Below are positions 2,738-64,000 of a stretch of DNA of 64,000 nucleotides, in pieces. Within the stretch, counting starts at the first letter, position 1; every line of letters begins with the position of its first letter. Origin of the DNA: Agelas oroides (Eukaryota > Porifera > Demospongiae > Agelasida > Agelasidae); NCBI GenBank assembly GCA_949130485.1, contig OX422199.1, positions 3,209,402-3,273,401 of the forward strand, read 5' to 3'. The translations under genes were made by a program, and so were the position numbers. The notes beneath the pieces were generated by a model. That model saw only the letters and a list, made by a program, of their open reading frames with translations, searched no databases and had not been told where the DNA came from.

Positions 2738-2768
<31 letters not shown>

Positions 2769-28402: not shown

Positions 28403-29072
<670 letters not shown>

Positions 29073-39976: not shown

Positions 39977-40072
39977 TCTTGTTCTTCCTGCACCAGTGGT
40001 GTGGAATAGTTTGATATGAGACGACTGCAACTTGTGCAACTGTCAGAATGTCAGTGAGCAACAAGTGCAGAG

Positions 40073-40167
40073 ATTTTTATAGCCAGTTGAGGGTACGTCA
40101 TGTAAGCTGTTGAATAATATTCACACAGTGGTTGGTGTTTTGTCAATGTGTCAACTGATGACATCAT
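40073..40167 (-). promoter_or_regulatory. Promoter of collagen C5
   Basis: CTATAAAAATCT (complement of 40071-40082) about 97 bp before the ATG; TGATGACATCA in the conserved block at 40141-40167. Confidence 0.65.
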
Positions 40168-41103: not shown

Positions 41104-41791
41104 GACTGAGTTCGGAGCAGTCAAACTGCACCAGACACTCCATTATTGTGAGTTCGGCCCCTTTGAACTTGATATTGCCCCCTTTGGACTGAGTTCGGAG
41201 CAGTCAAACTGCACCAGACACTCCATTATTGTGAGTTCGGCCCCTTTGAACTTGATATTGCCCCCTTTGGACTGAGTTCAGAGTAGTCGAACTGCACCAG
41301 ACACTCCATTATTGTGAGTTCGGCCCCTTTGAACTTGATATTGCCCCCTTTGGACTGAGTTCAGAGTAGTCGAACTGCACCAGACACTCCATTATTGTGA
41401 GTTCGGCCCCTTTGAACTTGATATTGCCCCCTTTGGACTGAGTTCAGAGTAGTCGAACTGCACCAAACTCTCCATCAGAGTGAGTTCGGCCCATTCAAAC
41501 TTGCTTTTGGCCCTTATAGATTGAGTTCGGAGTAGTCGAACTGTACTAAACTCTCCATCAGAGTGAGTTTGGCCCCTTCGAACTTCGTTTTGGGCCTTAT
41601 AGATTGAGTTTGGTATAGTCGAACTGCACCAAACTCTCCATCAGAGTGAGTTCGGCCCATTCGAACTTGGTTTTGGCCCTTATAGATTGAGTTCAGAGTA
41701 GTCGAACTGTACCAAACTCTCCATCAGAGTGAGTTTGCCCCCTTTGAGCTTGATATTGCCTCCTTTAGGCTGAGTTTGGTGTTGTCGAACT
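41104..41791. repeat. 83-bp satellite array
   Basis: About 8.3 tandem units of 83 bp. Units begin GACTGAGTTCGGAGCAGTC and contain CACCAGACACTCCATTATTG and GTGAGTTCGGCCCCTTTGAA. The later half belongs to a second subfamily (CCAAACTCTCCATCAGAGTG). Lies just downstream of an orphan collagen signal exon and forms the left edge of the 14,479-bp duplication. Confidence 0.95.
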
Positions 41792-41977
41792 GTATCAAGT
41801 ACGATACGTTTATTATGTAGGGGGTGGCCCATTATGCATGATTGTGGAGAGTGACATATGTATGCTAGTGCAATTAATGGGAAAATCAATTTTAAGTCTA
41901 ACTCTAATACAAAGTACAACCTCACCAAACCTGTGCTAATGCCACATCTGGAGTACACTTCAACACAAAACTTTTAC

Positions 41978-42047
41978 CTTCAGGAAACCCTTCAGCACAT
42001 ACTGCAAGGACCAAAGCACTTGCAATCACCACCGTTGCCAGTTGCAT
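41978..42047 (-). pseudogene. Orphan collagen signal exon with promoter
   Basis: ATG at 42047, MQLATVVIASALVLAVCAEG, FPE, donor GAAG|GTAAAA. TATA box and dyad upstream (42145-42238) are intact. Instead of an exon 2, the 83-bp satellite follows, then C5's own promoter. Signal differs little from C5 (both MQLATVV), suggesting a recent common origin. Confidence 0.8.
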
Positions 42048-42144
42048 TCTTGTTCTTCCTGCACCAGTGCTGTGGAATAGTTTGATATGAGACGACTGCA
42101 ACTTGTGCAACTGTCAGAATGTCAGTGAGCAACAAGTGTAGAGA

Positions 42145-42238
42145 TTTTTATAGCCAGTTGAGGGTACATCATGAAAGCTGTTGAGTAATATTCACACAGT
42201 GGTTGGTGTTCTGTCAATGTGTCAACTGATGACATCAT
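42145..42238 (-). promoter_or_regulatory. Promoter-like block of the 42-kb orphan exon
   Basis: CTATAAAAATCTC (complement of 42141-42153) and TGATGACATCA near 42228-42238. Confidence 0.6.
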
Positions 42239-44203
42239 CTCACACAGTGATAGTCCATCAATTGTTAATGTTCTATAGTAAGAGTTGATGTGATCTGATA
42301 ACCCCAGTGCTGTTGCTGTGATATTCTGATCTGAACCAACTCTCTATCAGTAATACAGTTCTGTCACTACTGGCACATGCATAACTACATTACCACTCCC
42401 AGCATCAGATGTTTGCTGTTGGTCTACGAAAGCAGATTTGTGTGTCAATAAGCTACGTACTCAGTCTAATAACCTTTGTGTGGTTACTCCAGTTTTAGAA
42501 CTGTTGAGTCTACTCAACAAATGCCATTCCCTTGTCGTGCATGTGAACTATAAGACTCATTAACTGTCTGTGCATGGCCTACTGTATATATTTTCCAGAC
42601 CTTAACTCTTATTGTTGCAATGCTCCAAGCTCCAGATGGTGAAGGCAGTTGTAAATAATTATATCCCTTCATGTGTGACAGCCACCTGTGAACAAATACA
42701 ATGTGCATGTATGGACAACAATAAATGAATTTGCTGCTATAGAACTGGATCGAAAGTTTACTTATAGACCCAAGTTAAGCACAGTGCAAATAAAAAGGCA
42801 TTGTTACTTTATCTTGTGATGTGAACTGGAAGGCTTATCAACTGTGTGTGGCCTCCCAGCCGTTGTAGCAACTTCAATTGTTGCAGTACTCTAAGCTCCA
42901 GATGGCAAAGACAGTGGATAAAACATCTTTTGTCCAAATGTACAATATTTATTTCCCCCGTGACAGCCAGCTATGGGCAAATACAAAGCACATGAATGTA
43001 CTACAAGCATAGGAACATTATGTAAGTGTATACAAAGCAAATAGGGTACTGTTCCTTTGTCAACTCAGAACTACCAGTGGCCCAGCCCTTGCAGTACCAT
43101 AGAAAAATTGGTGGTGGTTTTAATTTGGTGATTTAGATCTTTTGTCCCCAATCTCCAAATTAAATTCCCTCGTGACAGCAAGCTATGGGCAAATACAAAG
43201 CACATAAATACACTACAAGTGAAGGGAAGTTTATGTATGTAAGTACATACGAAGCAAAAGTCATTGTGAACTATCTGTGGCCGTTCCAAATGGGCCAGTT
43301 GCCTGTAAGAATTTTAAACTGTGCAATTATACATCCACTAAACAGTCTTGTACCATTTTGCATATAGAGATAGAGCTTTGCTGTTGTGTACTATGACAAT
43401 ACTCCACAAGAAAACTAGCAATGTCTACTACTCTCTTTGTTTTTCAACCCAAGCATGGCCCAACAAACTTACATGTTCAACGGGTTTTTTTGGCTGTGTG
43501 TTTGGCTGTGTTCAGCTTACTGTTTGTCAGCAACACTTTATACTAGACTTTAGTCTCCATCGTTATATCCAGTGCATGCAGAGACTGTCTGTGCTCAAAG
43601 ATACCTGACTCCACTTCATGGCCTACCTAGCTGTAACATGATAGTGAGATCGTACTGAAGACAATCTTGCACAACAGCTAAGGTATGCAACTTGAGAGAA
43701 AATGTATTCGAGTCAGTGAATGCATTTCAACACACATCATTACTTCAGGCAGCCCTTCTCACATACTGCAAGAACCAAAGCCATTACCTTTGTCAGTTGT
43801 GCGTGCAAGGCCTTCTGTTTCTCAGAAGAAACCTTACACTACTTCAGAAAACAGATGTTTGCTGTATGAGGCTATGAATCAACTAGCCTCGTACCCAGGC
43901 CTGGCTACGAGGCTGCATTGACATAAAAATTGTGTAGTATAGGTAGATTGATTTCTTCATCTGATAACCTTATCAAGTGGGTAATAAATTTCTCTGGTGC
44001 AATGGTCTCAATTTATAAGTTGAGTGTATTGGTGAGTGCCTTTTATATTGGCATACAATGTAATCAAATGTATCAGGTAACTTGTATGAAAGCAAATATA
44101 ATGCACTCAGCATTAGCATGTAGATTTTATTGCCACTAAGGTACAACAACTCAACATTTGCATGTTTTAGTTTACGAAAAGGAATACTTGCACGTAATGT
44201 CCT
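42239..44203. other. Spacer between orphan exon and collagen C6
   Basis: Array-spacer modules; a degenerate signal-exon relic near 43740-43815 (TACTTCAGGCAGCCCTTCTC); and a small fold-back at 43884-43914 (TAGCCTCGTACCCAGG / CCTGGCTACGAGGCT). No gene. Confidence 0.6.
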
Positions 44204-45253
44204 CTATTTAGTACAAACTGCACAGGTGAGTTCTTTCTGTGGATCATACGGTGGACACAGCATTCCATTGCAGCTGGCTTCAACATGGTAAAACACAGCA
44301 CCATTAGTATTAGAAGCACTGCCTGGCACTGAGTCTGGGTTCTTGTCAACACACTCATACATGGTGCGAGAGCGGTCATTCCATCTTCTTTCTGACATGA
44401 GGTAGCCGGAGTACTCCAAAGTCCATGTTGATGGACACTGAGTTTTAGCAGGTATCATTGTGACTGTCACCCTTGTTGAAGCATAGCACACAGCACAGGG
44501 GACATTGTGCTCTCGAACAGCTCGGAATGGTCCTCCATGTGTCTCATACTCTGCTCCATACACGTAGCTGTACCCTTGAACTCCGGGTGTGTAGCTGAGA
44601 TAGTCTGGATCATCAGGCATACAGAGGTGGTTGGCTGCGCCTCCCTTTTGTGAATAGTATGTTCCACCAACTCTCCCTGTATACACCAGTGTGGTACCTG
44701 AGACACTTGGACAACTACTTTTCCCCCATCTCGTGTAGACCACCCCACCATTCCTTGGTCCAGGGGGACCTGCTACTCCTTGGTCTCCCCTCTGCCCTTG
44801 TTGACCACGAGGACCAGGCACCCCATCTCGTCCATCTCTTCCATCTCGTCCTCGCAGCACCTCAATGTAGGGGAATGAGCTTGTGTTCACACTGTTCCCT
44901 CCACTTTGAGTGTCAGCACTCCTCTGAGGTCTGTGCAGAGCTCCAGCTACAGTGTGCAGTATAGTTGAATTTAAAGATTAAGACAAGAAATTTATCAAAT
45001 ATCCCTGCTAGTGGAAAATACAGTGAATCATATATGCATGGTTAAAATACTCCCCACATAGTGAGCACACAACAATTAGTTGCAAACAACTTTGGTGTAG
45101 CAAACAACAGTTTGAAGAAAATTGACATCAAAACTAAATTTGTTATGTCACAATTTTAATACATTTCAACTCACAACTTTTACCATCAGGCAGCCCTTCT
45201 GCACATACTGCAAGGAGGAAAGCACTTGTAATCACCACCTTTGCCAATTGCAT
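44204..45253 (-). CDS. Short-chain collagen C6
   Basis: Exons 45253-45184 (MQLAKVVITSAFLLAVCAEG, then LPD) and 44946-44204, 270 residues. 11 Gly-X-Y triplets (GPRGQQGQRGDQ with RGD), intact C-terminal domain with all conserved Cys; ends ECVDKNPDSVPG, CNGMLCPPYDPQ, CAVCTK. Intron 237 bp with a donor GATG|GTAAAA rather than the usual GAAG. Repeated almost unchanged at 58683-59732. Confidence 0.9.
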
Positions 45254-45350
45254 TCTTGTTCTTCCTGCACCAGTGCTATGGAATAGTTTGATATGAGACA
45301 ACTGCAACTTGTGTAACTGTCAGAATGTCAGTGAGCAACAAGTGTAGAGA

Positions 45351-45470
45351 TTTTTATAGTCAATGGAAAAATTCTACGTCATGTAAAATTTTTTGAGCTC
45401 TTAAATATTATTCATAGTTGTACAGGAGTCACAGGCATAGTGGTTGGTGTTGTGTCAATTCATGACATCA
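45351..45470 (-). promoter_or_regulatory. Promoter of collagen C6
   Basis: CTATAAAAATC (complement of 45349-45359). The dyad is reduced: only ATGACATCA at 45462-45470, with TGTCAATT preceding; part of the usual TCAATGTGTCAACTG block is deleted. Confidence 0.55.
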
Positions 45471-48171
45471 TAATATATAGTAAAGGTACACATTCCTATA
45501 GTAAGATAACAGATAACCCCATGAAGAGCTAATATGCAGTGTTACCTTGACCTGGTGTTTGAAAAGGTGTCACGAGTCAATCTCTCTAATACACAATCAT
45601 GATGGTTTAGTCATGACTGGTGCTCCAGAGGGAAAATCATTTCTCACTGCTGTGATACACCTTATGGCACTTGTAAGAAGGTTGTTCAGCTTGCTGTTCA
45701 TCATGCTGCTCTCTAGTCTCACTCAACACAAGGACTGTGAGCATCAGCACTCTTCAGGGTCCTGTACAGAGCTTCAGCAACAGAATGTTTTCTTTAAGAG
45801 TATAGCAGTGACATCAGTATTAGATATAGCCAGTAAGCTTCCTTCAAAAAGTGATCTTATACAACCAGAACTGAATTTAAATGCAGTCACGTAGAGAAGT
45901 CAGCCTCATGACATGCTAATAGCCAAAAATTGGGAGAGATAAGTGACATCTGCACATATAATTTTCTTTTGGTGTCTCTGAGTCAATTTTTTCCTCTGTC
46001 TAGTTAGTACATGCCTTGAAGTAGCTGCTTGTACTGCTATTGACATAGTGTGCTTGATTTTTACCCCCATGATAGTGATATTACACCAACACAGAGCAAT
46101 CGTGATGGCACATGCAAGGCAGTTTTTGTTCTGTCAACCTCTGAATACATAGTGAAAGTGCATAAGCATCAATGTTCAGGAGTAGAAATTGATGTAGAAA
46201 TTGATGTGACCCAAGGCATTCCCTTGTCATGCATGCATGGAGTACAACAAATGAATTTGCTACTAGGACTGGGAACTTTACTTAGGCCCACGTTAACCAC
46301 AATACAAAGCAAACAGCGCTGTTCCTTTATCTTGTCATGTGAACTGGAAGACTCATAAACTATCTGTGGCCTGTGCATCATTCACAGCCATTGTAGCAAC
46401 TTCAATTGTTGCAGTACTCCAAGCTCCAGATGGCAAAGACAGTGGATAAAACATCTTTTGTCCAAATGTACAATACTTTGTATCCCTTGTGAGTCAGCTA
46501 TGGGTTAACATGAATACACTATACAAGTGCAGGGAAGTTTATATATGTATATACAAAGCAAAGGGCATTGTTCCTATGTCAACTATCTGTGGCCAAATAT
46601 ACACAGTCTTGTACTATTTTTGGGTATTTATGTATATGGAATTTTTCTGTTTGTTTGTTTGATCGCATCTAACTTCTGTGTTCTACCGTATAGTCTATCA
46701 TAGTGCATATTGCAAAAAATTAGAACTGTCAACTGTCACTCAAACGATCTACAAACAAAGCCAATGAATCAAAAAACAAGTGAACTAAGCTGTCACATGC
46801 TCAGATGGTACTCGACAGCAATGTCTGCTACTCTCTTCATTTCTCAAGCTAGGTAACACAAGCAAGACCCAACAAACAGTTGCTTGTACATGTGCAAAGC
46901 CACAAACCTAAAACCTATAACCAACTGTTTGCGGAGCCTTGCTCAGCTTACCAAGATTCCCACTAGATCATATGTGTGATCATATGGATGTTGTGTACAC
47001 AATGCATAAATCAATCATCTCAGTAATCCTTTCAGTAATACATACAATGACTGCTATGTACCGTTTATGGCTACTACACTACTGCTGTCAGTAGCTTATT
47101 TCCAGACCCTTGCTTGCTGTTCAACTAAATGCACACACCTGATGACAGTACTTCAATGAATGTTGTGTTCAGCTTGCTATTTGTCAGCAACACCTCATGC
47201 TAGTCGGTAGTCTCTGTCATATAAGACATGCAGCCTTAGAGAGAATCTATATTTGAGCACAAGAATACATTTCAACACACAAATTTTACCTTCAGGCAGT
47301 CTTTCTGCTTAAGCTGTAATGACCAAAACACCACCTTTGCCAGTTGCATTCTTGTTCTTCCTGCATCAGTGCTGTGGAATAGTTTGATATGAGACGACTT
47401 CAACTTGTGTAACTGTCAGTACAGCAGTTTATATAACCAGTTGAAAACGTCAGTAATATTCATAGTTGTATTGATGGGTGCATTGGGTGGTATGTATATG
47501 ATGTCAATGTGTGAACTTGTGACATCATATGTAGTAAACATGTACCAGTCATATTGTGGTACACATAGTTGATTCATGTCTGTAGGGTAGCTGTGTTAGA
47601 CTCCCTGGGCAGCAGATCTTCATCGATTTTAGTCCACTAAAGGTGGCACTGCTGAGAAGCTGTTCATCTTGTTTATAGCCAACACATCATGCTGCTCTAT
47701 AGCCTCACACAACATGATGACTGCATATGTTCATGCATAGATAATCCCATCCTGTTGCAGCGTGGAATTAATGGCATGTCTAACTGTACGTCTATACATT
47801 TCTATGACCTTGAAGTTTTGTGTTCATATGCAACATACCAAGACAATGTGAACTGTTTAGCTAAGAAAATCTAAGTATCAAAACAAAATCTGCTCATTTT
47901 TGTTCATTGGCAACAGGGGTGACTTCTGCCAAAGCACAAGCATATTCAGACCACCAATTCAGAGAGTCTTTCCAACTTCCATGTTAACTTGCATTGTCTT
48001 ATAGAAGTTATGTGGCCTGGCAGTATATTGTGTGTTTTATACTGGAATGTCTTCAAGTATCTTGTATAAAAAAAAGCATGATAAACATTTCACTCAGCAT
48101 TGGCAAGTACATACTATTGCCTCAAAATTACTCAATATTATGCATTAATTCCCAAAAGTAATGTCTTCTAG
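45471..48171. other. Spacer between C6 and C7
   Basis: Array-spacer modules (CTCCAAGCTCCAGATGGCAA near 46418-46440), a degenerate signal exon at 47290-47349, and the C7 3'-flank module (47460-48171). No gene supported. Confidence 0.6.
47290..47349 (-). pseudogene. Degenerate collagen signal exon
   Basis: ATG at 47349 then MQLAKVV, after which about 10 nt are missing and the hydrophobic core is replaced (FWSLQLKQK). The donor GAAG|GTAAAA survives. The same relic is at 54668-54726 and in the duplicate at 61769-61828; a shorter one near 52229-52245. Confidence 0.75.
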
Positions 48172-49207
48172 CTACTTGGTACAAACTGCACAGGTAAGTT
48201 CTTTCTGTGGATCATAAGGTGGACACAGCATTCCATTGCAGCTGGCTTCAACATGGTAAAACAAAGCACCGTTAGCATTGGAAGCACTGCCTGGTACTGA
48301 GTCTGGGTTTTTGTCAACACACTTATACATGGCGCGGTTGTGAGTATATCCCTCTGACATGAGGTAGCCAGAGTACTCCAGAGTCCATGTTGATGGACAC
48401 TGAGTTTTAGCTGGGATCATTGTGACTGCCACCCTTGTCGAAGCATAGCACACAGCACAGGGGACATTGTGGTCATGAACAGTTGAGAATGGTCCTCCCC
48501 TTGTCTCATACTCTGCTCCATACACATAATTGGCTCCTTGCACTCCAGATTGGAAGCTGAGATAGTCTGGATCATCAGGCATGTAGAGGTAGTTGGCTGC
48601 TCCTCCCTTATGTGTGTAGTGTGTTCCACCAGCCCTTCCTGCATACACCAGTGTGGTACCTGTGACATTTGGACAGCTACTTTTTCCCCACCTTGTGTAG
48701 ACCACTCCACCATTCCTTGGTCCAGGAGGACCTGCTACTCCTTGGTCTCCCCTCTGCCCTTGGTCTCCCCTCTGTCCTTGCAGTCCACGGGGACCAGGCA
48801 CACCATCTCGTCCATCTCTTCCATCTCGTCCTCGCAGCACCTCAATGTAAGGGAAGGAACTTGTGTTCCCACTGTTCCCTCTACTCTGAGTGTCAGCACT
48901 CCTCTGGGGCCTGTGCAGAGCTCCAGCTACAGTGTGCAGTATAGTAGAAACAAGGGGTTCAAACCACAAGCAATACATCAAATATCACAACTAGTTAAAA
49001 TAGAGTACTTAGCTATCATTACACATAATGAGCACAAAACAGTTAGTTAATCACATTGCAAACAGTTTCAGTATGCAGACAACTTGAAGTTTGAAGAAAT
49101 TTTAAATCTTGAATACATTTCAATGCACAACCTTTACCTTCAGGCAGCCCCTCTGCACATGCTGCAAGGACCAAAGCACTTGCAATCACAACCTTTGCCA
49201 GTTGCAT
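48172..49207 (-). CDS. Short-chain collagen C7
   Basis: Exons 49207-49138 (MQLAKVVIASALVLAACAEG, then LPE) and 48926-48172, 274 residues. It has 13 Gly-X-Y triplets, two more than C2/C5/C6, through a repeated GQRGDQ, so it carries two RGD motifs. The Cys of the CMPDDPDY motif is Tyr (NYLYMPDD), an unpaired loss in an otherwise Cys-conserved domain. Ends CKCVDKNP-like (YKCVDKNPDSVPG), CNGMLCPP, CAVCTK. Repeated at 62651-63686. Confidence 0.9.
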
Positions 49208-49307
49208 TCTTGCTCTTCCTGCACCAGTGCTGTGGAATAGTTTGATATATGAGACAAACAGCAACTTGTGGATCTGTCAGAATGTCAGTGAGCAACAAGT
49301 GCAGTGA

Positions 49308-49430
49308 TTTTTATAGCCAGTTGAGGCTACGTCATATAATGTTTTGAGCTGTTGATTAATATTCATAAGTTGTATTGTGGCACATGAACAGTGGTTGGTG
49401 TTCTGTCAATGTGTCAACTGGTGACATCAT
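49308..49430 (-). promoter_or_regulatory. Promoter of collagen C7
   Basis: CTATAAAAATCAC (complement of 49304-49316), and GTGACATCAT within TCAATGTGTCAACTGGTGAC at 49404-49430. Here the dyad is imperfect (GGTGACATCA). Confidence 0.6.
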
Positions 49431-50050
49431 AACACAATCATAAGCCCTGTTTACACTAGCAATTAAACTGGTTTCAATCGGTTTACATTAAACTAGTTTT
49501 GCCAAACCACATCCATTATGTGGATTACAGAAAGTATAGTTTCCAAAATGCATTAAGGGCATTTATACACCTGCCATACACCGATTTGAAACCGATTTGA
49601 AACCGATTTGAAACTCCGGCTAAAGTGATAGTGCATCCATTGAGAACATCCTTTTAGTAAGAATTGATGTGGTGTGATGACGTTCATAAGCTCCTGCTTG
49701 AAGCTACGTCATGTAACATTTGGAGCTGTTGATTAATATTCATAAGTTGTATTGTGGCACATCAACAGTGGTTGGTCTTCTGTCAATGTGTCAACTGGTG
49801 ACATCATAACACAATCATAAGCCCTGTTTACACTAGCACTTAAACTGGTTTCAAATCCGTTTACATTAAACCAGTTTTAAGGTAAGACATTTCCAAAGCG
49901 CATACACCTGCCCTAAACCGATTTGAAACCGATTTGAAACCGATTTGAAACCAGTTTAGAATCCTAGTGTAAACAGAGCTAAAGTGATAGTGCATCCATT
50001 GTGAACATCCTTGTAGTAAGGATTGATGTGATCTGATGACCCCAGTGCTG
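49327..50050. repeat. Tandem duplication of the C7 upstream region
   Basis: The stretch with AGCTGTTGATTAATATTCAT, the GTGTCAACTGGTGACATCAT block and a GCCCTGTTTACACTAGC element occurs at about 49327-49690 and again about 377 bp further on (49690-50050). The second copy of the regulatory block lies at 49780-49810. Confidence 0.85.
49444..49980. mobile_element. Two copies of a PIF/Harbinger-like MITE
   Basis: GCCCTGTTTACACTAGC at the left and GTGTAAACAGAGC at the right (49820-49980), with three tandem CGATTTGAAAC repeats inside and TAA on each side. The other copy (49444-49625) has lost its right end. The superfamily is inferred from TIR style and the TAA flanks. Confidence 0.7.
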
Positions 50051-53000
50051 TTGCTGTGTTATGTTGACCTGAACCAACAGTTTAGTCATTACTGGTACAT
50101 GCATAGCTGCATTACCACTCTAAGCAGATGTTTGCTGTTGGTCTGTGAAAGTGTTTTACATCTCACAATACTTTTCATAAGGCCATTCAGCTTGCTGTTC
50201 ATTGACAACACATCATGCTGCAGTGTAGTTTCACATGGCGTAAAGACTGAAGGGTCAGCATTCCTAAGGGACGTGGGTATGAGACTAATGGAGAAGCTAG
50301 AGGGGGAGATAAGTCAAGTCTGCAGTCTTAATCTTCTGGTACTTCTTTTTTCTCTTGCCTGCAGTGCCTTGAAGTAGTTGTTCATATACTAGTATGAACA
50401 TGGCTTGTTTGGTTTATTAACCTCATGATATGTATATAGTGAAACACCAAATAGCCAAGCCACACACATTGTATTATGTGAAAATTGAAGGTGTTGAATA
50501 ATAGTTGTACTGCCGGCACATGCACAGTGGTATGGTGTTTGTCAGTGTGTCAATAAAATATTTAGTCAAATATCCATTTGTGTAGTTATAGTTTTAGAAC
50601 TATTGAGTCTACACAACAAAAGGCATTCCGTTGTCATGCATGTGAACTATAAGACTCATTGACGGTCTGTGCATGGCGTACTGTATATATATTCTTCAGC
50701 CCTTAACTCTTATTGTTGCAGTGATCCAAGCTCCAGATGGCGAAGGCAGTTGTAAATAATTATATCCCAGCCAGCTGTGAACATATACAAAGTGCATGCA
50801 TGGAGTAAATGAATTTGCTACTAGGACTGGACAGTTTACTCAGACCAAAGTTTAGCACAATGCAAAGCAAAAGGCATTGTTCTTTATCTTGTCATGTGAA
50901 CTGGAAGACACATAAACTATCTGTGACCTATGTGTCATTCCCAGCCATTGTAGCAACTTCAATTGTTGCTGTGCTCCAAGCTCCAGATGGCAAAGACAGT
51001 GGTTAAAACATCTTTTGTTCAAGTGCACAATACTTATATCCCTCTTGAGCCAGATATGCTAATACAAAGCACGTGAATACACTACAACTGCAACGAATTT
51101 TATGTAAGTATATACAAAGCAGAAGGGCATTGTTCCTATGTCAACTATCTGTGGTCAATTCAACTATACACTGTCTTGTACGATTTTATGGTACTTATGT
51201 ATGGCCATATATGGCATTTTTGATCACATCTAACTTCTGTGTTCTACTGCATGGTCTACCATAGTGCATACTGCAAGAAAAAGAGTTTTCATACTATCGA
51301 ATGATGTACAAGCTTGTACATCGTTCGATAGTACATTGTTCGATAGTATAAAAGCTCTGTTTCATTTCTCAAGCTAGGTAACACAAGCCAAGCCCAACAA
51401 ACAGTTGCTTGTACATGTGTGTGTAATAATGACCAGGGGATGGAAGTGGTGCAGAAGGTCAAACATCTACTCGGAGATAAAACCTATAACCAACTGTTTG
51501 TTGGGCCTTGCTCAGCTTACCTAGCTTGAGAAACAAAGGAGGGATTTATTAGAAGTCACTTGTCAAGTACTGTGTAGATTCCTTTGTTTCCTCATAATTT
51601 GCCTGGTTGCCTTGGCTTTTACACCATTCAGTAGCACAAAAGGACTGTTTTCTTGCTATAATAAACTGTACCATAGAACATGAAAGTTAGATGCAAAATG
51701 GGAAAATCCCATATGGTGTAGGACTGTAGTCCAGATGTGATGTAGCACTACAGTATCATTGTGTGAAAGTCACACACAAGTTGCCTAAAGGAAAAGCTTA
51801 GAGTACTGCATCATGGCTTTCCTGCATTACACAGTTGGTTGTCAGTTGTTACATGGTGGTTCTGCTACATTGTGGAGAGATTTCTGATCCTGTTGCATGG
51901 AACAAATCTTAAGTGCTAAGTTTTATCCCAGTGCTACACTACCAACTTCGGAGAAAGTTTTCCTAGGAAACTTGATATTCCCACTAGATCATATGTATGA
52001 TCATATTTATGTTGTGTACACGATGCATGTAAATAGCCTATTACCAAGTCCTTGCTTGCTGTTCATCACTGAATGTACACATCTGAGGACAGTACTTCAT
52101 GAATGTTGTGTTCAGCTTGCTGTTTGTCAGCAACACTTTATACTAGACTGTAGTCTCTGTCGTATAAGATATGCAGCCCACATGAATCTGTATTTGAGCA
52201 TGTGAATACATTTCAACACACAACTTTTTACCACCTTTGCCAGTTGCATTCTTGTTATTCCTGCACCAGTGTTGTGGAATACTTTGATATGAGACAACTG
52301 CAACTTGTGTAACTGTCAGTACAACAATTTATATAACCAGTTGAAAACGTCAGTAATATTCATAGTTGTATTGATGGGTGCATTGGGTGGTATGTATATG
52401 GTGTCAATGTGTCAACTTGTGACATCATATGTAGTAAACATGTACCAGTCATATTGTGGTACACATCATGTATGTAGGGCAGCTGTGTTAGACCCCCTGG
52501 GCAGCAGATCTATGTTCAGTTTTTGGTCACTGAAGGTGGCACTTCTGAGTAGGCTGTTCATCTTGTTTATAACCAACACACATCATGCTGCTCTATAGCC
52601 TCACACAACATGATGACTGCATATGTTCATGCATAGATAACCCCATCCTGTTGCAGAGTGGAATTAATGGCATCTCTAGCTGTACGTCTATACATTTCTA
52701 TGACCTTGAAGTCTTGTATTTATTGTAATCTCAGTTATTATCATACCAAAGAGAAGCACAGTGCACTAATATGTTTAGCTAAGAAAATTCACAATCTGAA
52801 ACACATCTTTCAAAATAGACACTGCAAAGCTTGTAATTAAGCCGATAAGTCAAGTCTACTGATTCCCTTTTCCTACTTGTCTGGAGCCTTGAAGAACTGC
52901 TATTGACACAGCATGCTTTACTATTATAATCACATGATATATAGTGAACCACCAAAACTGTTGCCAAGCCAATGGAGTCGGAGGGCTGGGAATCGGTAGA

Positions 53001-54667
53001 GACATCAATATCGATTATTAGTATACCCAATATTGATAGATAGTATCGGAGGAAGTAATTAATTAGGTTGACAGGAAAGGCCTCCCACTTAATTAAGTTA
53101 ATTGGCAGCATGATGAAACTGTACCAAGTACTATGAACTATGAATGTACAAAATACAAGACAGTGTAGGAGACAAGGGTAAGTTACAACTTAGTTCTCCA
53201 AAGCTTGGCTTTGTCAGTTATTAAATGCGAAATGCACGGAAAGTTCAAAGGTTATCGCTATTTCACTGCAGTATCGATTATCACTAAATCTGCATTATCG
53301 ATAACGATTATCGATATTTCGATTATCGAGTCCCGGGAGTCCGAAAAATGTGTTGGGTCATGTGAAAATTTAAAGTTGTTGAACTTGTGGTATGATGTTT
53401 TGTTAGTGTGACCTTGGTTAAAACAAAGGGGTTATTGAACTGGTGAGTACTACTCAACTAAAAGCATTGCCTTGTCATGCATTTGAACTATATGACTCAT
53501 TAGCTGTCTGTGGCCTACTGTCCCCAACCCTTAATTGTTGCAATGCTCCCAGCTCCAGATGGTGAAGGCAGTAGTAAACCTTTTGAATACATGTCTTCCT
53601 TCGTGTCAGCCAGCTGTGAACAACTACAAAGTGCATGCATGGAGTACAACAAATGAATTTGCCACTAGGACTGGAAAGTTTACTCAGACCAAACTTAAGC
53701 ACAATACAAAGCAAAAGGCATTGTTCTTTCATGTGAACTGGAAGACTCGTGAACTATCTGTGACCTATGTAGCATTCCCAGCGCTTGTAGCAACTTCAAT
53801 TGTTGCAGTACTCCAAGCTCCAGATGGCAAAGATAGTGGATAAAACATATTTTGTCCAAATGTACAATACTTGTATCCCTTGTGAGCCAGCTATGGGTTA
53901 ACATGAATACACTACAAGTGCAGGGAGGTTTATGTATGTATATACAAAGCAAAGGGCATTGTTCCTATGTCAACTATCTGTGGCCAAATATACACAGTCT
54001 TGTACTATTTTTGGGTATTTATGTATATGGAATGTTTCTGTTTGTTTGTTTGATCGCATCTAACTTCTGTGTTCTACTGTATAGTCTATCATAGTGCATA
54101 TTGCAAAAAATTAGAACTGTCAACTGTCACTCAAACGATGTACAAACAAAGCCAATAAATCAAAAAACAAGCGAACTACGCTGTCACATGCTCAGATGGT
54201 ACTCGACAGCAATGTCTGCTACTCTCTTCATTTCTCAAGCTGGGTAACACAAGCAAGGCAAACAGTTGCTTGTAGATGTGCAAACGTCAAAGCCACAAAC
54301 CTAAAACCTATAACCAACTGTTTGCGGAGCCTTGCTCAGCTTACCAAGATTCCCACTAGATCATATGTGTGATCATATGGATGTTAAATCAATCATCTCA
54401 GTAATCCTTTCAGTAGTACATACAATGACTGCTATGTACCGTTTATGGCTACTACACTACTGCTGTCAGTAGCCTATTTCCAGACCCTTGCTTGCTGTTC
54501 AACTAAATGCACACACCTGATGACAGTACTTCAATGAATGTTGTGTTCAGCTTGCTATTTGTCAGCAACACCTCATGCTAGTCGGTAGTCTCTGTCATAT
54601 AAGACATGCAGCCTTAGAGAGAATCTATATTTGAGCACAAGAATACATTTCAACACACAAATTTTAC
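50051..54667. other. Long gene-free spacer of array 2
   Basis: Diverged tandem spacer modules without a collagen second exon: 50870-51000 and 53710-53840 share the CAATTGTTGC...CTCCAAGCTCCAGATGG module; 51000-51800 matches 16000-16900; 52100-52840 matches 47200-47880, including a tiny relic of a signal exon at 52229-52245. One transposon-like insertion (52977-53344). Confidence 0.6.
52977..53344. mobile_element. 368-bp insertion with inverted-repeat ends
   Basis: Starts GTCGGAGGGCTGGGAATCG and ends CGAGTCCCGGGAGTCCGA, imperfect inverted repeats, with several ATCGATTATCG-type motifs inside. The related spacer at 15.62 kb reads GCCAAGCCAATGGAAAAACA without it, showing the empty site. Confidence 0.75.
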
Positions 54668-54726
54668 CTTCAGGCAGTCTTTCTGCTTAAGCTGTAATGA
54701 CCAAAATACCACTTTGCCAGTTGCAT
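54668..54726 (-). pseudogene. Degenerate collagen signal exon
   Basis: Same relic type as 47290-47349, here 59 nt with an additional base lost. ATG followed by MQLAK, then frame-broken; donor GAAG|GTAAAA retained. Confidence 0.7.
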
Positions 54727-55514
54727 TCTTGTTCTTCCTGCACCAGTACTGTGGAATAGTTTGATATGAGACGACTTCAACTTGTGTAACTGTCAGTACA
54801 ACAATTTATATAACCAGTTACAAACATCAGTAATATTCATATTGGGTGGTATGTATATGGTGTCAATGTGTCAACTTGTGACATCATATGTAGTAAACAT
54901 GTACCAGTCATATTGTGGTACACATAGTTGATTCATTTCTGTAGGGTAGCTGTGTTAGACTCCCTGGGCGGCAGATCTTCATTGATTTTAGTCCACTAAA
55001 GGTGGCACTGCTGAGAAGCTGTTCATCTTGTTTATAGCCAACACATCATGCTGCTCTATAACCTCACACAACATGATGACTGCATACGTATGTTCATGCA
55101 TAGATAATCCCATCCTGTTGCAGCGTGGAATTAATGGCATGTCTAACTGTACGTCTATACATTTCTATGACCTTGAAGTTTTGTGTTCATATGCAACATA
55201 CCAAGACAAGGTGAACTGTTTAGCTAAGAAAATCAAAGTATCAAAACAAAATCTGCTCATTTTTGTTCATTGGCAACAGGGGTGACTTCTGCCAAAGCAC
55301 AAGCATATTCAGACTACCAGTTCAGAGAGCTTTCTAGCTTCCATGTTAACTTGCATTGTCTTATAGAAGTTATGTGGCCTGGCAGTATATTGTGTGTTTT
55401 ATATTGTATAAAAAAAAAACATGATAAACATTTCACTCAGCATTGGCAAGTACATACTATTGCCTCAAAATTACTCAATATTATGCATTAATTCCCAAAA
55501 GTAATGTCTTCTAG

Positions 55515-55790
55515 CTACTTGGTACAAACTGCACAGGTAAGTTCTTTCTGTGGATCATAAGGTGGACACATCATTCCATTGCAGCTGGCTTCAACATGGT
55601 AAAACAAAGCACCATTAGTACTAGAAGCACTGCCTGGTACTGAGTCTGGGTTTTTGTCAACACACTTATACATGGCGCGGTTGTGAGTATATCGCTCTGA
55701 CATGAGGTAGCCAGAGTACTCCAGAGTCCATGTTGATGGACACTGAGTTTTAGCTGGGATCATTGTGACTGCCACCCTTGTTGAAGCATA
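55515..55790 (-). pseudogene. Short-chain collagen C8, cut by the duplication junction
   Basis: Only the last 91 codons of exon 2 remain: YASTRVAVTMIPAKTQCPST to CNGMMCPPYDPQ and CAVCTK. At 55790/55791 the exon stops and satellite sequence equivalent to 41312 begins. No collagen triplets or signal exon follow. If the tandem model is right, the full C8 gene should lie beyond the right end, after the second unit. Confidence 0.9.
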
Positions 55791-56456
55791 TTGTGAGTTC
55801 GGCCCCTTTGAACTTGATATTGCCCCCTTTGGACTGAGTTCAGAGTAGTCGAACTGCACCAGACACTCCATTATTGTGAGTTCGGCCCCTTTGAACTTGA
55901 TATTGCCCCCTTTGGACTGAGTTCAGAGTAGTCGAACTGCACCAAACTCTCCATCAGAGTGAGTTCGGCCCATTCAAACTTGCTTTTGGCCCTTATAGAT
56001 TGAGTTCGGAGTAGTCGAACTGTACTAAACTCTCCATCAGAGTGAGTTTGGCCCCTTCGAACTTCGTTTTGGGCCTTATAGATTGAGTTTGGTATAGTCG
56101 AACTGCACCAAACTCTCCATCAGAGTGAGTTCGGCCCATTCGAACTTGGTTTTGGCCCTTATAGATTGAGTTCAGAGTAGTCGAACTGTACCAAACTCTC
56201 CATCAGAGTGAGTTTGCCCCCTTTGAGCTTGATATTGCCTCCTTTAGGCTGAGTTTGGTGTTGTCGAACTGTATCAAGTACGATACGTTTATTATGTAGG
56301 GGGTGGCCCATTATGCATGATTGTGGAGAGTGACATATGTATGCTAGTGCAATTAATGGGAAAATCAATTTTAAGTCTAACTCTAATACAAAGTACAACC
56401 TCACCAAACCTGTGCTAATGCCACATCTGGAGTACACTTCAACACAAAACTTTTAC

Positions 56457-56526
56457 CTTCAGGAAACCCTTCAGCACATACTGCAAGGACCAAAGCACTT
56501 GCAATCACCACCGTTGCCAGTTGCAT
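56457..56526 (-). pseudogene. Orphan collagen signal exon (duplicate of 41978-42047)
   Basis: Identical layout and peptide (MQLATVVIASALVLAVC). Its promoter block is at 56624-56717. Here it sits just upstream of satellite and then the truncated C8 exon 55515-55790 on the same strand, so splicing from this signal exon into the C8 remnant is geometrically possible, although no acceptor is evident at the junction. Confidence 0.75.
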
Positions 56527-58682
56527 TCTTGTTCTTCCTGCACCAGTGCTGTGGAATAGTTTGATATGAGACGACTGCAACTTGTGCAACTGTCAGAATG
56601 TCAGTGAGCAACAAGTGTAGAGATTTTTATAGCCAGTTGAGGGTACATCATGAAAGCTGTTGAGTAATATTCACACAGTGGTTGGTGTTCTGTCAATGTG
56701 TCAACTGATGACATCATCTCACACAGTGATAGTCCATCAATTGTTAATGTTCTATAGTAAGAGTTGATGTGATCTGATAACCCCAGTGCTGTTGCTGTGA
56801 TATTCTGATCTGAACCAACTCTCTATCAGTAATACAGTTCTGTCACTACTGGCACATGCATAACTACATTACCACTCCCAGCATCAGATGTTTGCTGTTG
56901 GTCTACGAAAGCAGATTTGTGTGTCAATAAGCTACGTACTCAGTCTAATAACCTTTGTGTGGTTACTCCAGTTTTAGAACTGTTGAGTCTACTCAACAAA
57001 TGCCATTCCCTTGTCGTGCATGTGAACTATAAGACTCATTAACTGTCTGTGCATGGCCTACTGTATATATTTTCCAGACCTTAACTCTTATTGTTGCAAT
57101 GCTCCAAGCTCCAGATGGTGAAGGCAGTTGTAAATAATTATATCCCTTCATGTGTGACAGCCACCTGTGAACAAATACAATGTGCATGTATGGACAACAA
57201 TAAATGAATTTGCTGCTATAGAACTGGATCGAAAGTTTACTTATAGACCCAAGTTAAGCACAGTGCAAATAAAAAGGCATTGTTACTTTATCTTGTGATG
57301 TGAACTGGAAGGCTTATCAACTGTGTGTGGCCTCCCAGCCGTTGTAGCAACTTCAATTGTTGCAGTACTCTAAGCTCCAGATGGCAAAGACAGTGGATAA
57401 AACATCTTTTGTCCAAATGTACAATATTTATTTCCCCCGTGACAGCCAGCTATGGGCAAATACAAAGCACATGAATGTACTACAAGCATAGGAACATTAT
57501 GTAAGTGTATACAAAGCAAATAGGGTACTGTTCCTTTGTCAACTCAGAACTACCAGTGGCCCAGCCCTTGCAGTACCATAGAAAAATTGGTGGTGGTTTT
57601 AATTTGGTGATTTAGATCTTTTGTCCCCAATCTCCAAATTAAATTCCCTCGTGACAGCAAGCTATGGGCAAATACAAAGCACATAAATACACTACAAGTG
57701 AAGGGAAGTTTATGTATGTAAGTACATACGAAGCAAAAGTCATTGTGAACTATCTGTGGCCGTTCCAAATGGGCCAGTTGCCTGTAAGAATTTTAAACTG
57801 TGCAATTATACATCCACTAAACAGTCTTGTACCATTTTGCATATAGAGATAGAGCTTTGCTGTTGTGTACTATGACAATACTCCACAAGAAAACTAGCAA
57901 TGTCTACTACTCTCTTTGTTTTTCAACCCAAGCATGGCCCAACAAACTTACATGTTCAACGGGTTTTTTTGGCTGTGTGTTTGGCTGTGTTCAGCTTACT
58001 GTTTGTCAGCAACACTTTATACTAGACTTTAGTCTCCATCGTTATATCCAGTGCATGCAGAGACTGTCTGTGCTCAAAGATACCTGACTCCACTTCATGG
58101 CCTACCTAGCTGTAACATGATAGTGAGATCGTACTGAAGACAATCTTGCACAACAGCTAAGGTATGCAACTTGAGAGAAAATGTATTCGAGTCAGTGAAT
58201 GCATTTCAACACACATCATTACTTCAGGCAGCCCTTCTCACATACTGCAAGAACCAAAGCCATTACCTTTGTCAGTTGTGCGTGCAAGGCCTTCTGTTTC
58301 TCAGAAGAAACCTTACACTACTTCAGAAAACAGATGTTTGCTGTATGAGGCTATGAATCAACTAGCCTCGTACCCAGGCCTGGCTACGAGGCTGCATTGA
58401 CATAAAAATTGTGTAGTATAGGTAGATTGATTTCTTCATCTGATAACCTTATCAAGTGGGTAATAAATTTCTCTGGTGCAATGGTCTCAATTTATAAGTT
58501 GAGTGTATTGGTGAGTGCCTTTTATATTGGCATACAATGTAATCAAATGTATCAGGTAACTTGTATGAAAGCAAATATAATGCACTCAGCATTAGCATGT
58601 AGATTTTATTGCCACTAAGGTACAACAACTCAACATTTGCATGTTTTAGTTTACGAAAAGGAATACTTGCACGTAATGTCCT

Positions 58683-59732
58683 CTATTTAGTACAAACTGC
58701 ACAGGTGAGTTCTTTCTGTGGATCATACGGTGGACACAGCATTCCATTGCAGCTGGCTTCAACATGGTAAAACACAGCACCATTAGTATTAGAAGCACTG
58801 CCTGGCACTGAGTCTGGGTTCTTGTCAACACACTCATACATGGTGCGAGAGCGGTCATTCCATCTTCTTTCTGACATGAGGTAGCCGGAGTACTCCAAAG
58901 TCCATGTTGATGGACACTGAGTTTTAGCAGGTATCATTGTGACTGTCACCCTTGTTGAAGCATAGCACACAGCACAGGGGACATTGTGCTCTCGAACAGC
59001 TCGGAATGGTCCTCCATGTGTCTCATACTCTGCTCCATACACGTAGCTGTACCCTTGAACTCCGGGTGTGTAGCTGAGATAGTCTGGATCATCAGGCATA
59101 CAGAGGTGGTTGGCTGCGCCTCCCTTTTGTGAATAGTATGTTCCACCAACTCTCCCTGTATACACCAGTGTGGTACCTGAGACACTTGGACAACTACTTT
59201 TCCCCCATCTCGTGTAGACCACCCCACCATTCCTTGGTCCAGGGGGACCTGCTACTCCTTGGTCTCCCCTCTGCCCTTGTTGACCACGAGGACCAGGCAC
59301 CCCATCTCGTCCATCTCTTCCATCTCGTCCTCGCAGCACCTCAATGTAGGGGAATGAGCTTGTGTTCACACTGTTCCCTCCACTTTGAGTGTCAGCACTC
59401 CTCTGAGGTCTGTGCAGAGCTCCAGCTACAGTGTGCAGTATAGTTGAATTTAAAGATTAAGACAAGAAATTTATCAAATATCCCTGCTAGTGGAAAATAC
59501 AGTGAATCATATATGCATGGTTAAAATACTCCCCACATAGTGAGCACACAACAATTAGTTGCAAACAACTTTGGTGTAGCAAACAACAGTTTGAAGAAAA
59601 TTGACATCAAAACTAAATTTGTTATGTCACAATTTTAATACATTTCAACTCACAACTTTTACCATCAGGCAGCCCTTCTGCACATACTGCAAGGAGGAAA
59701 GCACTTGTAATCACCACCTTTGCCAATTGCAT
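58683..59732 (-). CDS. Short-chain collagen C6 duplicate
   Basis: Exons 59732-59663 and 59425-58683, 270 residues, translation identical to C6 (44204-45253). Promoter block at 59830-59949. The identity means it adds dosage rather than a new product, if the duplication is real. Confidence 0.88.
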
Positions 59733-61768
59733 TCTTGTTCTTCCTGCACCAGTGCTATGGAATAGTTTGATATGAGACAACTGCAACTTGTGTAACTGTC
59801 AGAATGTCAGTGAGCAACAAGTGTAGAGATTTTTATAGTCAATGGAAAAATTCTACGTCATGTAAAATTTTTTGAGCTCTTAAATATTATTCATAGTTGT
59901 ACAGGAGTCACAGGCATAGTGGTTGGTGTTGTGTCAATTCATGACATCATAATATATAGTAAAGGTACACATTCCTATAGTAAGATAACAGATAACCCCA
60001 TGAAGAGCTAATATGCAGTGTTACCTTGACCTGGTGTTTGAAAAGGTGTCACGAGTCAATCTCTCTAATACACAATCATGATGGTTTAGTCATGACTGGT
60101 GCTCCAGAGGGAAAATCATTTCTCACTGCTGTGATACACCTTATGGCACTTGTAAGAAGGTTGTTCAGCTTGCTGTTCATCATGCTGCTCTCTAGTCTCA
60201 CTCAACACAAGGACTGTGAGCATCAGCACTCTTCAGGGTCCTGTACAGAGCTTCAGCAACAGAATGTTTTCTTTAAGAGTATAGCAGTGACATCAGTATT
60301 AGATATAGCCAGTAAGCTTCCTTCAAAAAGTGATCTTATACAACCAGAACTGAATTTAAATGCAGTCACGTAGAGAAGTCAGCCTCATGACATGCTAATA
60401 GCCAAAAATTGGGAGAGATAAGTGACATCTGCACATATAATTTTCTTTTGGTGTCTCTGAGTCAATTTTTTCCTCTGTCTAGTTAGTACATGCCTTGAAG
60501 TAGCTGCTTGTACTGCTATTGACATAGTGTGCTTGATTTTTACCCCCATGATAGTGATATTACACCAACACAGAGCAATCGTGATGGCACATGCAAGGCA
60601 GTTTTTGTTCTGTCAACCTCTGAATACATAGTGAAAGTGCATAAGCATCAATGTTCAGGAGTAGAAATTGATGTAGAAATTGATGTGACCCAAGGCATTC
60701 CCTTGTCATGCATGCATGGAGTACAACAAATGAATTTGCTACTAGGACTGGGAACTTTACTTAGGCCCACGTTAACCACAATACAAAGCAAACAGCGCTG
60801 TTCCTTTATCTTGTCATGTGAACTGGAAGACTCATAAACTATCTGTGGCCTGTGCATCATTCACAGCCATTGTAGCAACTTCAATTGTTGCAGTACTCCA
60901 AGCTCCAGATGGCAAAGACAGTGGATAAAACATCTTTTGTCCAAATGTACAATACTTTGTATCCCTTGTGAGTCAGCTATGGGTTAACATGAATACACTA
61001 TACAAGTGCAGGGAAGTTTATGTATGTATATACAAAGCAAAGGGCATTGTTCCTATGTCAACTATCTGTGGCCAAATATACACAGTCTTGTACTATTTTT
61101 GGGTATTTATGTATATGGAATTTTTCTGTTTGTTTGTTTGATCGCATCTAACTTCTGTGTTCTACCGTATAGTCTATCATAGTGCATATTGCAAAAAATT
61201 AGAACTGTCAACTGTCACTCAAACGATCTACAAACAAAGCCAATGAATCAAAAAACAAGTGAACTAAGCTGTCACATGCTCAGATGGTACTCGACAGCAA
61301 TGTCTGCTACTCTCTTCATTTCTCAAGCTAGGTAACACAAGCAAGACCCAACAAACAGTTGCTTGTACATGTGCAAAGCCACAAACCTAAAACCTATAAC
61401 CAACTGTTTGCGGAGCCTTGCTCAGCTTACCAAGATTCCCACTAGATCATATGTGTGATCATATGGATGTTGTGTACACAATGCATAAATCAATCATCTC
61501 AGTAATCCTTTCAGTAATACATACAATGACTGCTATGTACCGTTTATGGCTACTACACTACTGCTGTCAGTAGCTTATTTCCAGACCCTTGCTTGCTGTT
61601 CAACTAAATGCACACACCTGATGACAGTACTTCAATGAATGTTGTGTTCAGCTTGCTATTTGTCAGCAACACCTCATGCTAGTCGGTAGTCTCTGTCATA
61701 TAAGACATGCAGCCTTAGAGAGAATCTATATTTGAGCACAAGAATACATTTCAACACACAAATTTTAC

Positions 61769-61828
61769 CTTCAGGCAGTCTTTCTGCTTAAGCTGTAATG
61801 ACCAAAACACCACCTTTGCCAGTTGCAT
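61769..61828 (-). pseudogene. Degenerate collagen signal exon (duplicate)
   Basis: Second-unit copy of the relic at 47290-47349. Confidence 0.7.
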
Positions 61829-62650
61829 TCTTGTTCTTCCTGCATCAGTGCTGTGGAATAGTTTGATATGAGACGACTTCAACTTGTGTAACTGTCAGTA
61901 CAGCAGTTTATATAACCAGTTGAAAACGTCAGTAATATTCATAGTTGTATTGATGGGTGCATTGGGTGGTATGTATATGATGTCAATGTGTGAACTTGTG
62001 ACATCATATGTAGTAAACATGTACCAGTCATATTGTGGTACACATAGTTGATTCATGTCTGTAGGGTAGCTGTGTTAGACTCCCTGGGCAGCAGATCTTC
62101 ATCGATTTTAGTCCACTAAAGGTGGCACTGCTGAGAAGCTGTTCATCTTGTTTATAGCCAACACATCATGCTGCTCTATAGCCTCACACAACATGATGAC
62201 TGCATATGTTCATGCATAGATAATCCCATCCTGTTGCAGCGTGGAATTAATGGCATGTCTAACTGTACGTCTATACATTTCTATGACCTTGAAGTTTTGT
62301 GTTCATATGCAACATACCAAGACAATGTGAACTGTTTAGCTAAGAAAATCTAAGTATCAAAACAAAATCTGCTCATTTTTGTTCATTGGCAACAGGGGTG
62401 ACTTCTGCCAAAGCACAAGCATATTCAGACCACCAATTCAGAGAGTCTTTCCAACTTCCATGTTAACTTGCATTGTCTTATAGAAGTTATGTGGCCTGGC
62501 AGTATATTGTGTGTTTTATACTGGAATGTCTTCAAGTATCTTGTATAAAAAAAAGCATGATAAACATTTCACTCAGCATTGGCAAGTACATACTATTGCC
62601 TCAAAATTACTCAATATTATGCATTAATTCCCAAAAGTAATGTCTTCTAG

Positions 62651-63686
62651 CTACTTGGTACAAACTGCACAGGTAAGTTCTTTCTGTGGATCATAAGGTG
62701 GACACAGCATTCCATTGCAGCTGGCTTCAACATGGTAAAACAAAGCACCGTTAGCATTGGAAGCACTGCCTGGTACTGAGTCTGGGTTTTTGTCAACACA
62801 CTTATACATGGCGCGGTTGTGAGTATATCCCTCTGACATGAGGTAGCCAGAGTACTCCAGAGTCCATGTTGATGGACACTGAGTTTTAGCTGGGATCATT
62901 GTGACTGCCACCCTTGTCGAAGCATAGCACACAGCACAGGGGACATTGTGGTCATGAACAGTTGAGAATGGTCCTCCCCTTGTCTCATACTCTGCTCCAT
63001 ACACATAATTGGCTCCTTGCACTCCAGATTGGAAGCTGAGATAGTCTGGATCATCAGGCATGTAGAGGTAGTTGGCTGCTCCTCCCTTATGTGTGTAGTG
63101 TGTTCCACCAGCCCTTCCTGCATACACCAGTGTGGTACCTGTGACATTTGGACAGCTACTTTTTCCCCACCTTGTGTAGACCACTCCACCATTCCTTGGT
63201 CCAGGAGGACCTGCTACTCCTTGGTCTCCCCTCTGCCCTTGGTCTCCCCTCTGTCCTTGCAGTCCACGGGGACCAGGCACACCATCTCGTCCATCTCTTC
63301 CATCTCGTCCTCGCAGCACCTCAATGTAAGGGAAGGAACTTGTGTTCCCACTGTTCCCTCTACTCTGAGTGTCAGCACTCCTCTGGGGCCTGTGCAGAGC
63401 TCCAGCTACAGTGTGCAGTATAGTAGAAACAAGGGGTTCAAACCACAAGCAATACATCAAATATCACAACTAGTTAAAATAGAGTACTTAGCTATCATTA
63501 CACATAATGAGCACAAAACAGTTAGTTAATCACATTGCAAACAGTTTCAGTATGCAGACAACTTGAAGTTTGAAGAAATTTTAAATCTTGAATACATTTC
63601 AATGCACAACCTTTACCTTCAGGCAGCCCCTCTGCACATGCTGCAAGGACCAAAGCACTTGCAATCACAACCTTTGCCAGTTGCAT
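62651..63686 (-). CDS. Short-chain collagen C7 duplicate
   Basis: Exons 63686-63617 and 63405-62651, 274 residues, identical in translation to C7, including 13 triplets, two RGD motifs and the Cys-to-Tyr change in YMPDD. Promoter block 63787-63909; the window ends inside its upstream MITE. Confidence 0.88.
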
Positions 63687-64000
63687 TCTTGCTCTTCCTG
63701 CACCAGTGCTGTGGAATAGTTTGATATATGAGACAAACAGCAACTTGTGGATCTGTCAGAATGTCAGTGAGCAACAAGTGCAGTGATTTTTATAGCCAGT
63801 TGAGGCTACGTCATATAATGTTTTGAGCTGTTGATTAATATTCATAAGTTGTATTGTGGCACATGAACAGTGGTTGGTGTTCTGTCAATGTGTCAACTGG
63901 TGACATCATAACACAATCATAAGCCCTGTTTACACTAGCAATTAAACTGGTTTCAATCGGTTTACATTAAACTAGTTTTGCCAAACCACATCCATTATGT

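What the first reader, a model, noticed from the sequence alone, without database searches (positions are those of the whole stretch)
41312..64000. Near-identical 14,479-bp tandem duplication with its junction inside a collagen exon
All landmarks from 41312 to 49521 recur at +14479. The joint at 55790/55791 fuses the C8 second exon to the middle of an 83-bp satellite unit, with only a TA microhomology. I noticed one substitution, so it is very young, a copy-number polymorphism, or an assembly duplicate of two haplotypes. A true tandem predicts a complete C8 exon immediately after the second unit.
Basis: seen in the sequence. Interest (0 to 1): 0.72.

Follow-up and report, generated by a model that had tools for sequence, protein, structure and literature searches.

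The report
Young tandem duplication in collagen cluster
A 14.5-kb stretch carrying two short collagen genes sits twice in a row, almost letter for letter identical, in what looks like a sponge genome; it is a clear but ordinary case of a gene cluster growing by a recent copy-and-join event.

Summary
Positions 41310-55790 recur at 55789-70270 with 2 substitutions and one 1-bp A-run difference in 14,482 aligned columns. The joint at 55790/55791 fuses the interior of a collagen exon (C8) to the middle of an 83-bp satellite unit, with a 2-bp TA overlap only. DNA fetched beyond the window shows unit 2 running straight into a complete, open C8 exon at 69998-70654. Left flank and DNA past C8 each have one full-length place in the assembly; two interior pieces have two, both in the tandem. 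Best reading: a real, very young tandem duplication made by end-joining or microhomology-primed replication, not homologous crossing-over. It adds two spongin-like short-chain collagen genes and leaves a headless C8 remnant. Fixed, heterozygous or (less likely) assembly error cannot be settled without reads. The cluster holds a second near-identical pair (~12 kb, 187.5 kb apart) with a different signature, resembling long gene conversion. New member of a known kind; modest interest.

The parts
41098..41792 (.). 83-bp satellite array (8.4 units); the left breakpoint lies inside it at 41310-41312
   Evidence: TRF; pieces at 79-96% identity on C3, C2, C15, C10, C7, C23 and elsewhere on C17, (query includes some flanking DNA)
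41312..55790 (.). Copy 1 of the 14,479-bp unit (placement ambiguous by the 2-bp TA)
44204..44977 (-). Stop-to-stop ORF holding the main (second) exon of a short-chain collagen gene, copy 1 (part compared: 44207-44869)
   Evidence: ORF; tblastn; open, TAG after it, 10 Cys, no HSQ
48172..48984 (-). Stop-to-stop ORF holding the main exon of a second short-chain collagen gene, copy 1 (part compared: 48175-48849); one nearly invariant Cys is Tyr
55518..55790 (-). Headless C8 remnant: last 91 codons of the exon; the triple-helix part and everything upstream are missing
55515..55922 (-). Open frame through the joint: 27 satellite-derived codons from an ATG plus 91 C8 codons (118 aa); expression not tested
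55789..55792 (.). Joint of the duplication with TA microhomology
   Evidence: the 201-bp joined query has one full-length place, (40 of 112 candidates scored)
55791..64000 (.). Copy 2, part inside the window; it continues to 70270 in contig DNA and ends inside the complete C8 exon (69998-70654)
58683..59456 (-). Copy 2 of the first collagen ORF (compared part identical to copy 1)
62651..63463 (-). Copy 2 of the second collagen ORF (compared part identical to copy 1)

Best explanation
A real, direct tandem duplication of 14,479 bp in a spongin-like short-chain collagen cluster. Inferred steps: breaks (or a stalled fork) in an 83-bp satellite array and in the main exon of collagen gene C8; the C8-side end of one copy was joined to the satellite-side end of a sister or homologous copy by end-joining, or by microhomology-primed replication, using at most TA. 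Shown: two head-to-tail copies, one non-homologous joint, near-zero divergence, continuous sequence on both outer sides. Consequence (shown in sequence): two collagen genes with open main exons gained, C8 complete after copy 2, a headless C8 remnant at the joint. That the remnant is a pseudogene is inferred.
For: Sharp identity edges at 41310 and 70270. Complete C8 after unit 2, as a true tandem requires. The left flank and the DNA past C8 have one full-length place each; two interior pieces (2,001 and 3,001 bases) have two full-length near-100% places each, both in the tandem. 2 substitutions in 14,479 bp, Poisson 95% 1.7e-5 to 5.0e-4 per site. No homology beyond 2 bp at the join, so homologous unequal exchange did not make this joint. 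Published parallel: yeast CUP1 arrays, joints with 3 bp of homology or less and one partner inside a gene (PMC4232551, passages).
Against: No reads or depth were available. A 2-bp overlap is expected by chance in ~16% of random joins, so it does not identify the pathway. The same cluster holds another near-identical pair of ~12 kb, which could also mean that this part of the assembly is hard to get right.
Confidence: 0.8

Rival explanations
1. A special case of the best explanation, not exclusive of it: the duplication is real but heterozygous, one haplotype of the sequenced animal having two units and the other one.
For: Extreme youth. A single-unit allele need not be present in a one-haplotype assembly, so its absence among close matches says nothing against it.
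Against: Nothing direct; needs reads.
Confidence: 0.4
2. Assembly duplicate: two haplotypes, or a chimeric amplified read, laid in series.
For: The copies differ by only 2 substitutions and one homopolymer length, a level that sequencing error or low heterozygosity can give. A second near-identical pair in the same cluster could point to assembly trouble.
Against: No N in the window; the join has no homologous overlap and falls at two unrelated points. Two haplotypes of an outbred marine invertebrate would usually differ more (inference; 2.3 and 1.14% heterozygosity in two corals, PMC10236652, passages).
Confidence: 0.12
3. An old tandem duplication kept identical by gene conversion.
For: The cluster does show a ~12-kb near-identical tract between loci 187.5 kb apart, with diverged colinear flanks, which looks like conversion.
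Against: Identity here is uniform right up to both non-homologous edges; conversion would have to cover the whole 14.5 kb to the last base. No diverged shoulder is seen.
Confidence: 0.04
4. Unequal homologous crossing-over between repeats of the cluster made the duplication.
For: The cluster is full of repeats, many 82-95% identical; [quoted passage not shown]
Against: The joint joins satellite to exon with a 2-bp overlap only; identity left of 41310 is at chance level and the sequences part at once after 70270.
Confidence: 0.02

Closest known systems
Yeast CUP1 tandem arrays (Zhao et al. 2014, PMC4232551; passages seen)
   Same: Direct tandem repeats made from a single-copy locus; one side of the joint can lie inside a gene (RSC30); 3 bp of homology or less at the joints; end-joining favoured by the authors
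   Different: Type 1 unit is 1,998 bp and the gene is a copper-binding metallothionein; here the unit is 14.5 kb, two copies, no phenotype known
Stickleback MYH3C myosin copy-number haplotypes (PMC12776057, preprint; passages seen)
   Same: Tandem growth of a structural-protein gene cluster; first step by microhomology joining of non-homologous sites
   Different: Microhomology 4-8 bp there, 2 bp here; several haplotypes and long-read confirmation exist there
Segmental and tandem duplication in the freshwater sponge Ephydatia muelleri (PMC7385117; passages seen)
   Same: Large clusters of related genes, tandem and widespread segmental duplication in a sponge
   Different: No single young joint is described in the passages seen; slippage and unequal crossing-over are proposed there
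[quoted passage not shown] 1991, seen only in a reference list)
   Same: Same kind of multigene collagen family, as far as protein features tested here go
   Different: Genomic layout in that work not seen
Drosophila yakuba tandem duplications making chimeric genes (PMC5460883; abstract seen)
   Same: A duplication boundary inside a gene makes a new gene structure
   Different: Here the chimeric frame has no expression evidence and probably no promoter (inference)

Membership tests
Direct tandem duplication | Two head-to-tail copies, one novel joint, both outer sides continuous | tested here: met
Direct tandem duplication | Reads span the joint; depth agrees with copy number | not testable with these tools
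   no reads held
End-joining or microhomology type joint | Few or no shared bases at the joint | tested here: met
   TA only; chance of 2 bp or more 0.16, so the pathway is not singled out
NAHR / unequal crossing-over product | Long homology between the two breakpoints | tested here: not met
   identity at chance level left of the unit, match ends at 70270
Spongin short-chain collagen (as described in PMC5395295, passages) | Short Gly-X-Y stretch followed by an NC1-related C-terminal domain | tested here: inconclusive
   Short Gly-X-Y stretch present; Pfam Collagen E 3.7e-4 and 3.3e-5, both below the gathering score; the PDB profile search matched only within positions 3-40, the triple-helix part; structure model failed, mean pLDDT 25.6
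Spongin short-chain collagen (as described in PMC5395295, passages) | Seven cysteines shared with collagen IV plus three of its own; no HSQ motif | tested here: inconclusive
   The total of ten fits: 10 Cys in 15 of 19 full-length open exons (three have 9, one has 11; 17 of the 19 are distinct, as two are second copies), HSQ in 0 of 21 open exons; HSQ appeared in 2 of 5 broken ones, read across frameshifts. Which cysteines correspond was not tested, as no alignment to collagen IV was made

The most novel reading that the evidence does not exclude
The short-chain collagen cluster is being actively resized and homogenised in living populations by two processes at once: end-joining duplications starting at a hairpin-forming 83-bp satellite, and ectopic conversion tracts of about 12 kb. 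Collagen gene dosage would then vary between individuals.
Probability: 0.15. Interest if true: 0.5.

Novelty: new member of a known kind. Interest (0 to 1): 0.3.

Why it matters
It catches one step of gene-cluster growth before mutation has blurred the joint, in what appears to be a sponge structural-protein cluster. The joint shows that this step needed no long homology, whereas slippage and unequal crossing-over were proposed for clusters of the sponge Ephydatia (PMC7385117, passages). If polymorphic, the joint is a ready PCR marker for collagen copy number.

Tried and rejected
Homologous unequal exchange was rejected for this joint because identity left of the unit is at chance level and the match ends at once after 70270. 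A third copy or an allele was sought with the left flank (23 of 23 candidates scored), two interior pieces (40 of 270 and 40 of 353 scored) and the DNA past C8 (40 of 421 scored); no further full-length place was found. A phage comparison had no match and is uninformative. Pfam, PDB and structure prediction did not confirm an NC1 fold: weak Collagen hits only, PDB matches only in the collagen stretch, model with mean pLDDT 25.6, so no fold search was run. The species was not found: a search for papers giving 259.3 Mb or similar sizes listed one unrelated plant review, and the 11 genome papers listed (10 sponges, one sea fan; abstracts only) give other sizes. Searches were used from their listings to choose papers.

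No separate first exon of the collagen genes was found with a 26-residue signal-peptide query, except the stretch fused in frame at 19.9 kb from which the query was taken. Among 18 exons (the two second copies dropped; one of the 18 holds a stop) closeness on the chromosome did not go with similarity: Spearman -0.19 over 153 pairs, P 0.017, the opposite sign to neighbour-by-neighbour growth. Hairpin idea: the breakpoint 41310-41311 lies in the 16-base loop 41298-41313 of a predicted satellite hairpin, but 9 of 200 shuffles fold as well (z -1.85), and a loop covers 16 of 83 bases of a unit, so this is a lead only. Five further stretches of the array gave z of -1.80, -3.01, -1.85, -2.37 and -4.42 (the third has the same sequence as the first one folded, and others fold differently); the C8 breakpoint gave +1.78.

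Full report
WHAT WAS CHECKED. The window is C17:3209402-3273401 of a 259.3-Mb, 141-contig assembly. Sliding the window against itself by 14,479 gives chance identity (24-29% in the five 250-bp bins from 40001 to 41250) and then full identity from 41310, with one mismatch at 46543, to the last comparable base of the window. DNA beyond the window was then fetched. The match continues to 70270: 14,482 aligned columns, 2 substitutions (46543, 50009) and one A10/A11 run difference near 55419.

THE DECISIVE PREDICTION. A true tandem requires that unit 2 be followed by the sequence that the joint interrupts in unit 1. At 70270 the sequence passes without a break from the shared part into the rest of C8, giving a complete exon at 69998-70654 on the minus strand, open, with TAG directly after it. 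In unit 1 the same exon ends at 55790 and satellite follows.

COPY NUMBER IN THE ASSEMBLY. The 201-bp joined query has one full-length place. The left flank (first 310 bases of the query) has one full-length place; a 46-base part of it recurs at 100% elsewhere on C17. Interior pieces of 2,001 and 3,001 bases each have two full-length near-100% places, both in the tandem. The DNA from the C8 exon onward has one full-length 100% place, next best 93% over most of it. score only the 40 best candidates, so they speak about close copies only. Assemblers more often collapse than expand near-identical long repeats (recalled), so two may be a lower bound on the true number.

THE JOINT. One parent is a unit of an 83-bp satellite (41098-41792); pieces similar to it occur at 79-96% identity on C3, C2, C15, C10, C7, C23 and elsewhere on C17. 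The other parent is the interior of the C8 exon. Overlap TA. A match of 2 bp or more is expected in 16% of random joins, so microhomology use is not proven; what is shown is that long homology was not used. End-joining and microhomology-primed replication both fit. The breakpoint lies in the loop of a predicted satellite hairpin, but the statistics are weak.

AGE. 1.4e-4 substitutions per site between copies (95% 1.7e-5 to 5.0e-4). With a rate of 1e-9 to 5e-9 per site and generation (recalled, not measured for this animal), the point estimate is about 14,000 to 69,000 generations, with wide limits. Sequencing error could account for some or all of the differences, so it may be younger.

WHAT IS DUPLICATED. 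Two collagen genes whose main exons are open, and identical between copies, plus the last 91 codons of C8. The protein type fits the published description of spongin short-chain collagen in part: short Gly-X-Y part, ten cysteines in 15 of 19 full-length open exons, HSQ in 0 of 21 open exons (description from passages of PMC5395295). Homology to the collagen IV NC1 domain was not shown here: Pfam, PDB and AlphaFold gave no support. 'Sponge' is therefore an inference from the protein type and from recall; no tool named the organism.

THE CLUSTER. In the 264 kb put together (5 kb of it N), 33 tblastn pieces make 30 collagen-exon-like places, 29 of them on the minus strand. Of 26 inspected (four short partial ones left out), 21 have no stop and 5 are broken; of the 21, two are partial, one of them the C8 remnant. 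The 91-bp C8 piece has 39 places among the 53 matches (14 are satellite): 26 in C17:3.11-3.49 Mb, 2 elsewhere on C17, 10 on C11, 1 on C6; a lower bound. So one more duplication here is not surprising. Against simple neighbour-by-neighbour growth, nearby exons are not the most alike.

A SECOND YOUNG EVENT. C17:3189.5-3201.9 kb and its partner 187,549 bp downstream differ by 6 substitutions in about 12.4 kb, plus 23 gap columns near 3192.4-3193.4 kb. To the right divergence rises to 4-6% per 500 bp; to the left it is 0.2-1.4% with large gaps for about 3 kb and then 4-8%. Unlike the tandem, this has homologous shoulders and no foreign joint; a long ectopic conversion or exchange tract is the simplest reading (inference). 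An assembly mix-up is not excluded.

VERDICT. Real in the sequence, ordinary in kind, cleanly documented. Best reading: true tandem duplication by non-homologous joining, confidence 0.8; heterozygous or fixed cannot be told.

Noticed in passing
C17:3189500-3201860 (window-based -19901 to -7541; loci L016, L009) vs +187549 (L030, L029): Second near-identical pair: 6 substitutions and 23 gap columns in about 12.4 kb, with diverged colinear shoulders (up to about 8% per 500 bp); looks like a long gene-conversion or exchange tract.
   Followed up: partly
window 217-6764 and 28842-33676: Two sets of ORFs with ZU5 (E 4.2e-4, at the cut-off; 0.012, below it), weak spectrin (0.027) and weak Death (0.074) matches between the collagen genes; 4545-6029 vs 31015-32505 are 91% identical.
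   Followed up: partly
window 19169-20002, minus strand: This collagen ORF has a signal-peptide-like stretch in frame with the main exon; a search with it found no other such match in the 264 kb, and six other genes shown have different sequence ending in AG there: possible intron loss or a different gene model.
   Followed up: partly
window 29504-30087 and 3186-3292: A 53-bp tandem repeat with 11 copies at one place and 2 at the other.
   Followed up: no
C17:3204402-3209401: Exactly 5,000 N directly left of the window; withheld stretch or assembly gap, not known.
   Followed up: no
window 48175-48849 and 62654-63328: The second duplicated collagen gene has Tyr in place of a nearly invariant Cys.
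   Followed up: no
window 26095-26760, and window-based 120332-120997: Two related collagen exons (closest to each other, 6.5% apart, ~94 kb apart) read CAG where the others in the table have TAG after the exon.
   Followed up: no
window-based 110210-112382 vs 133598-135764 (right of the window on C17): Another recent pair, 2.2 kb at 99.08%, 23 kb apart.
   Followed up: no
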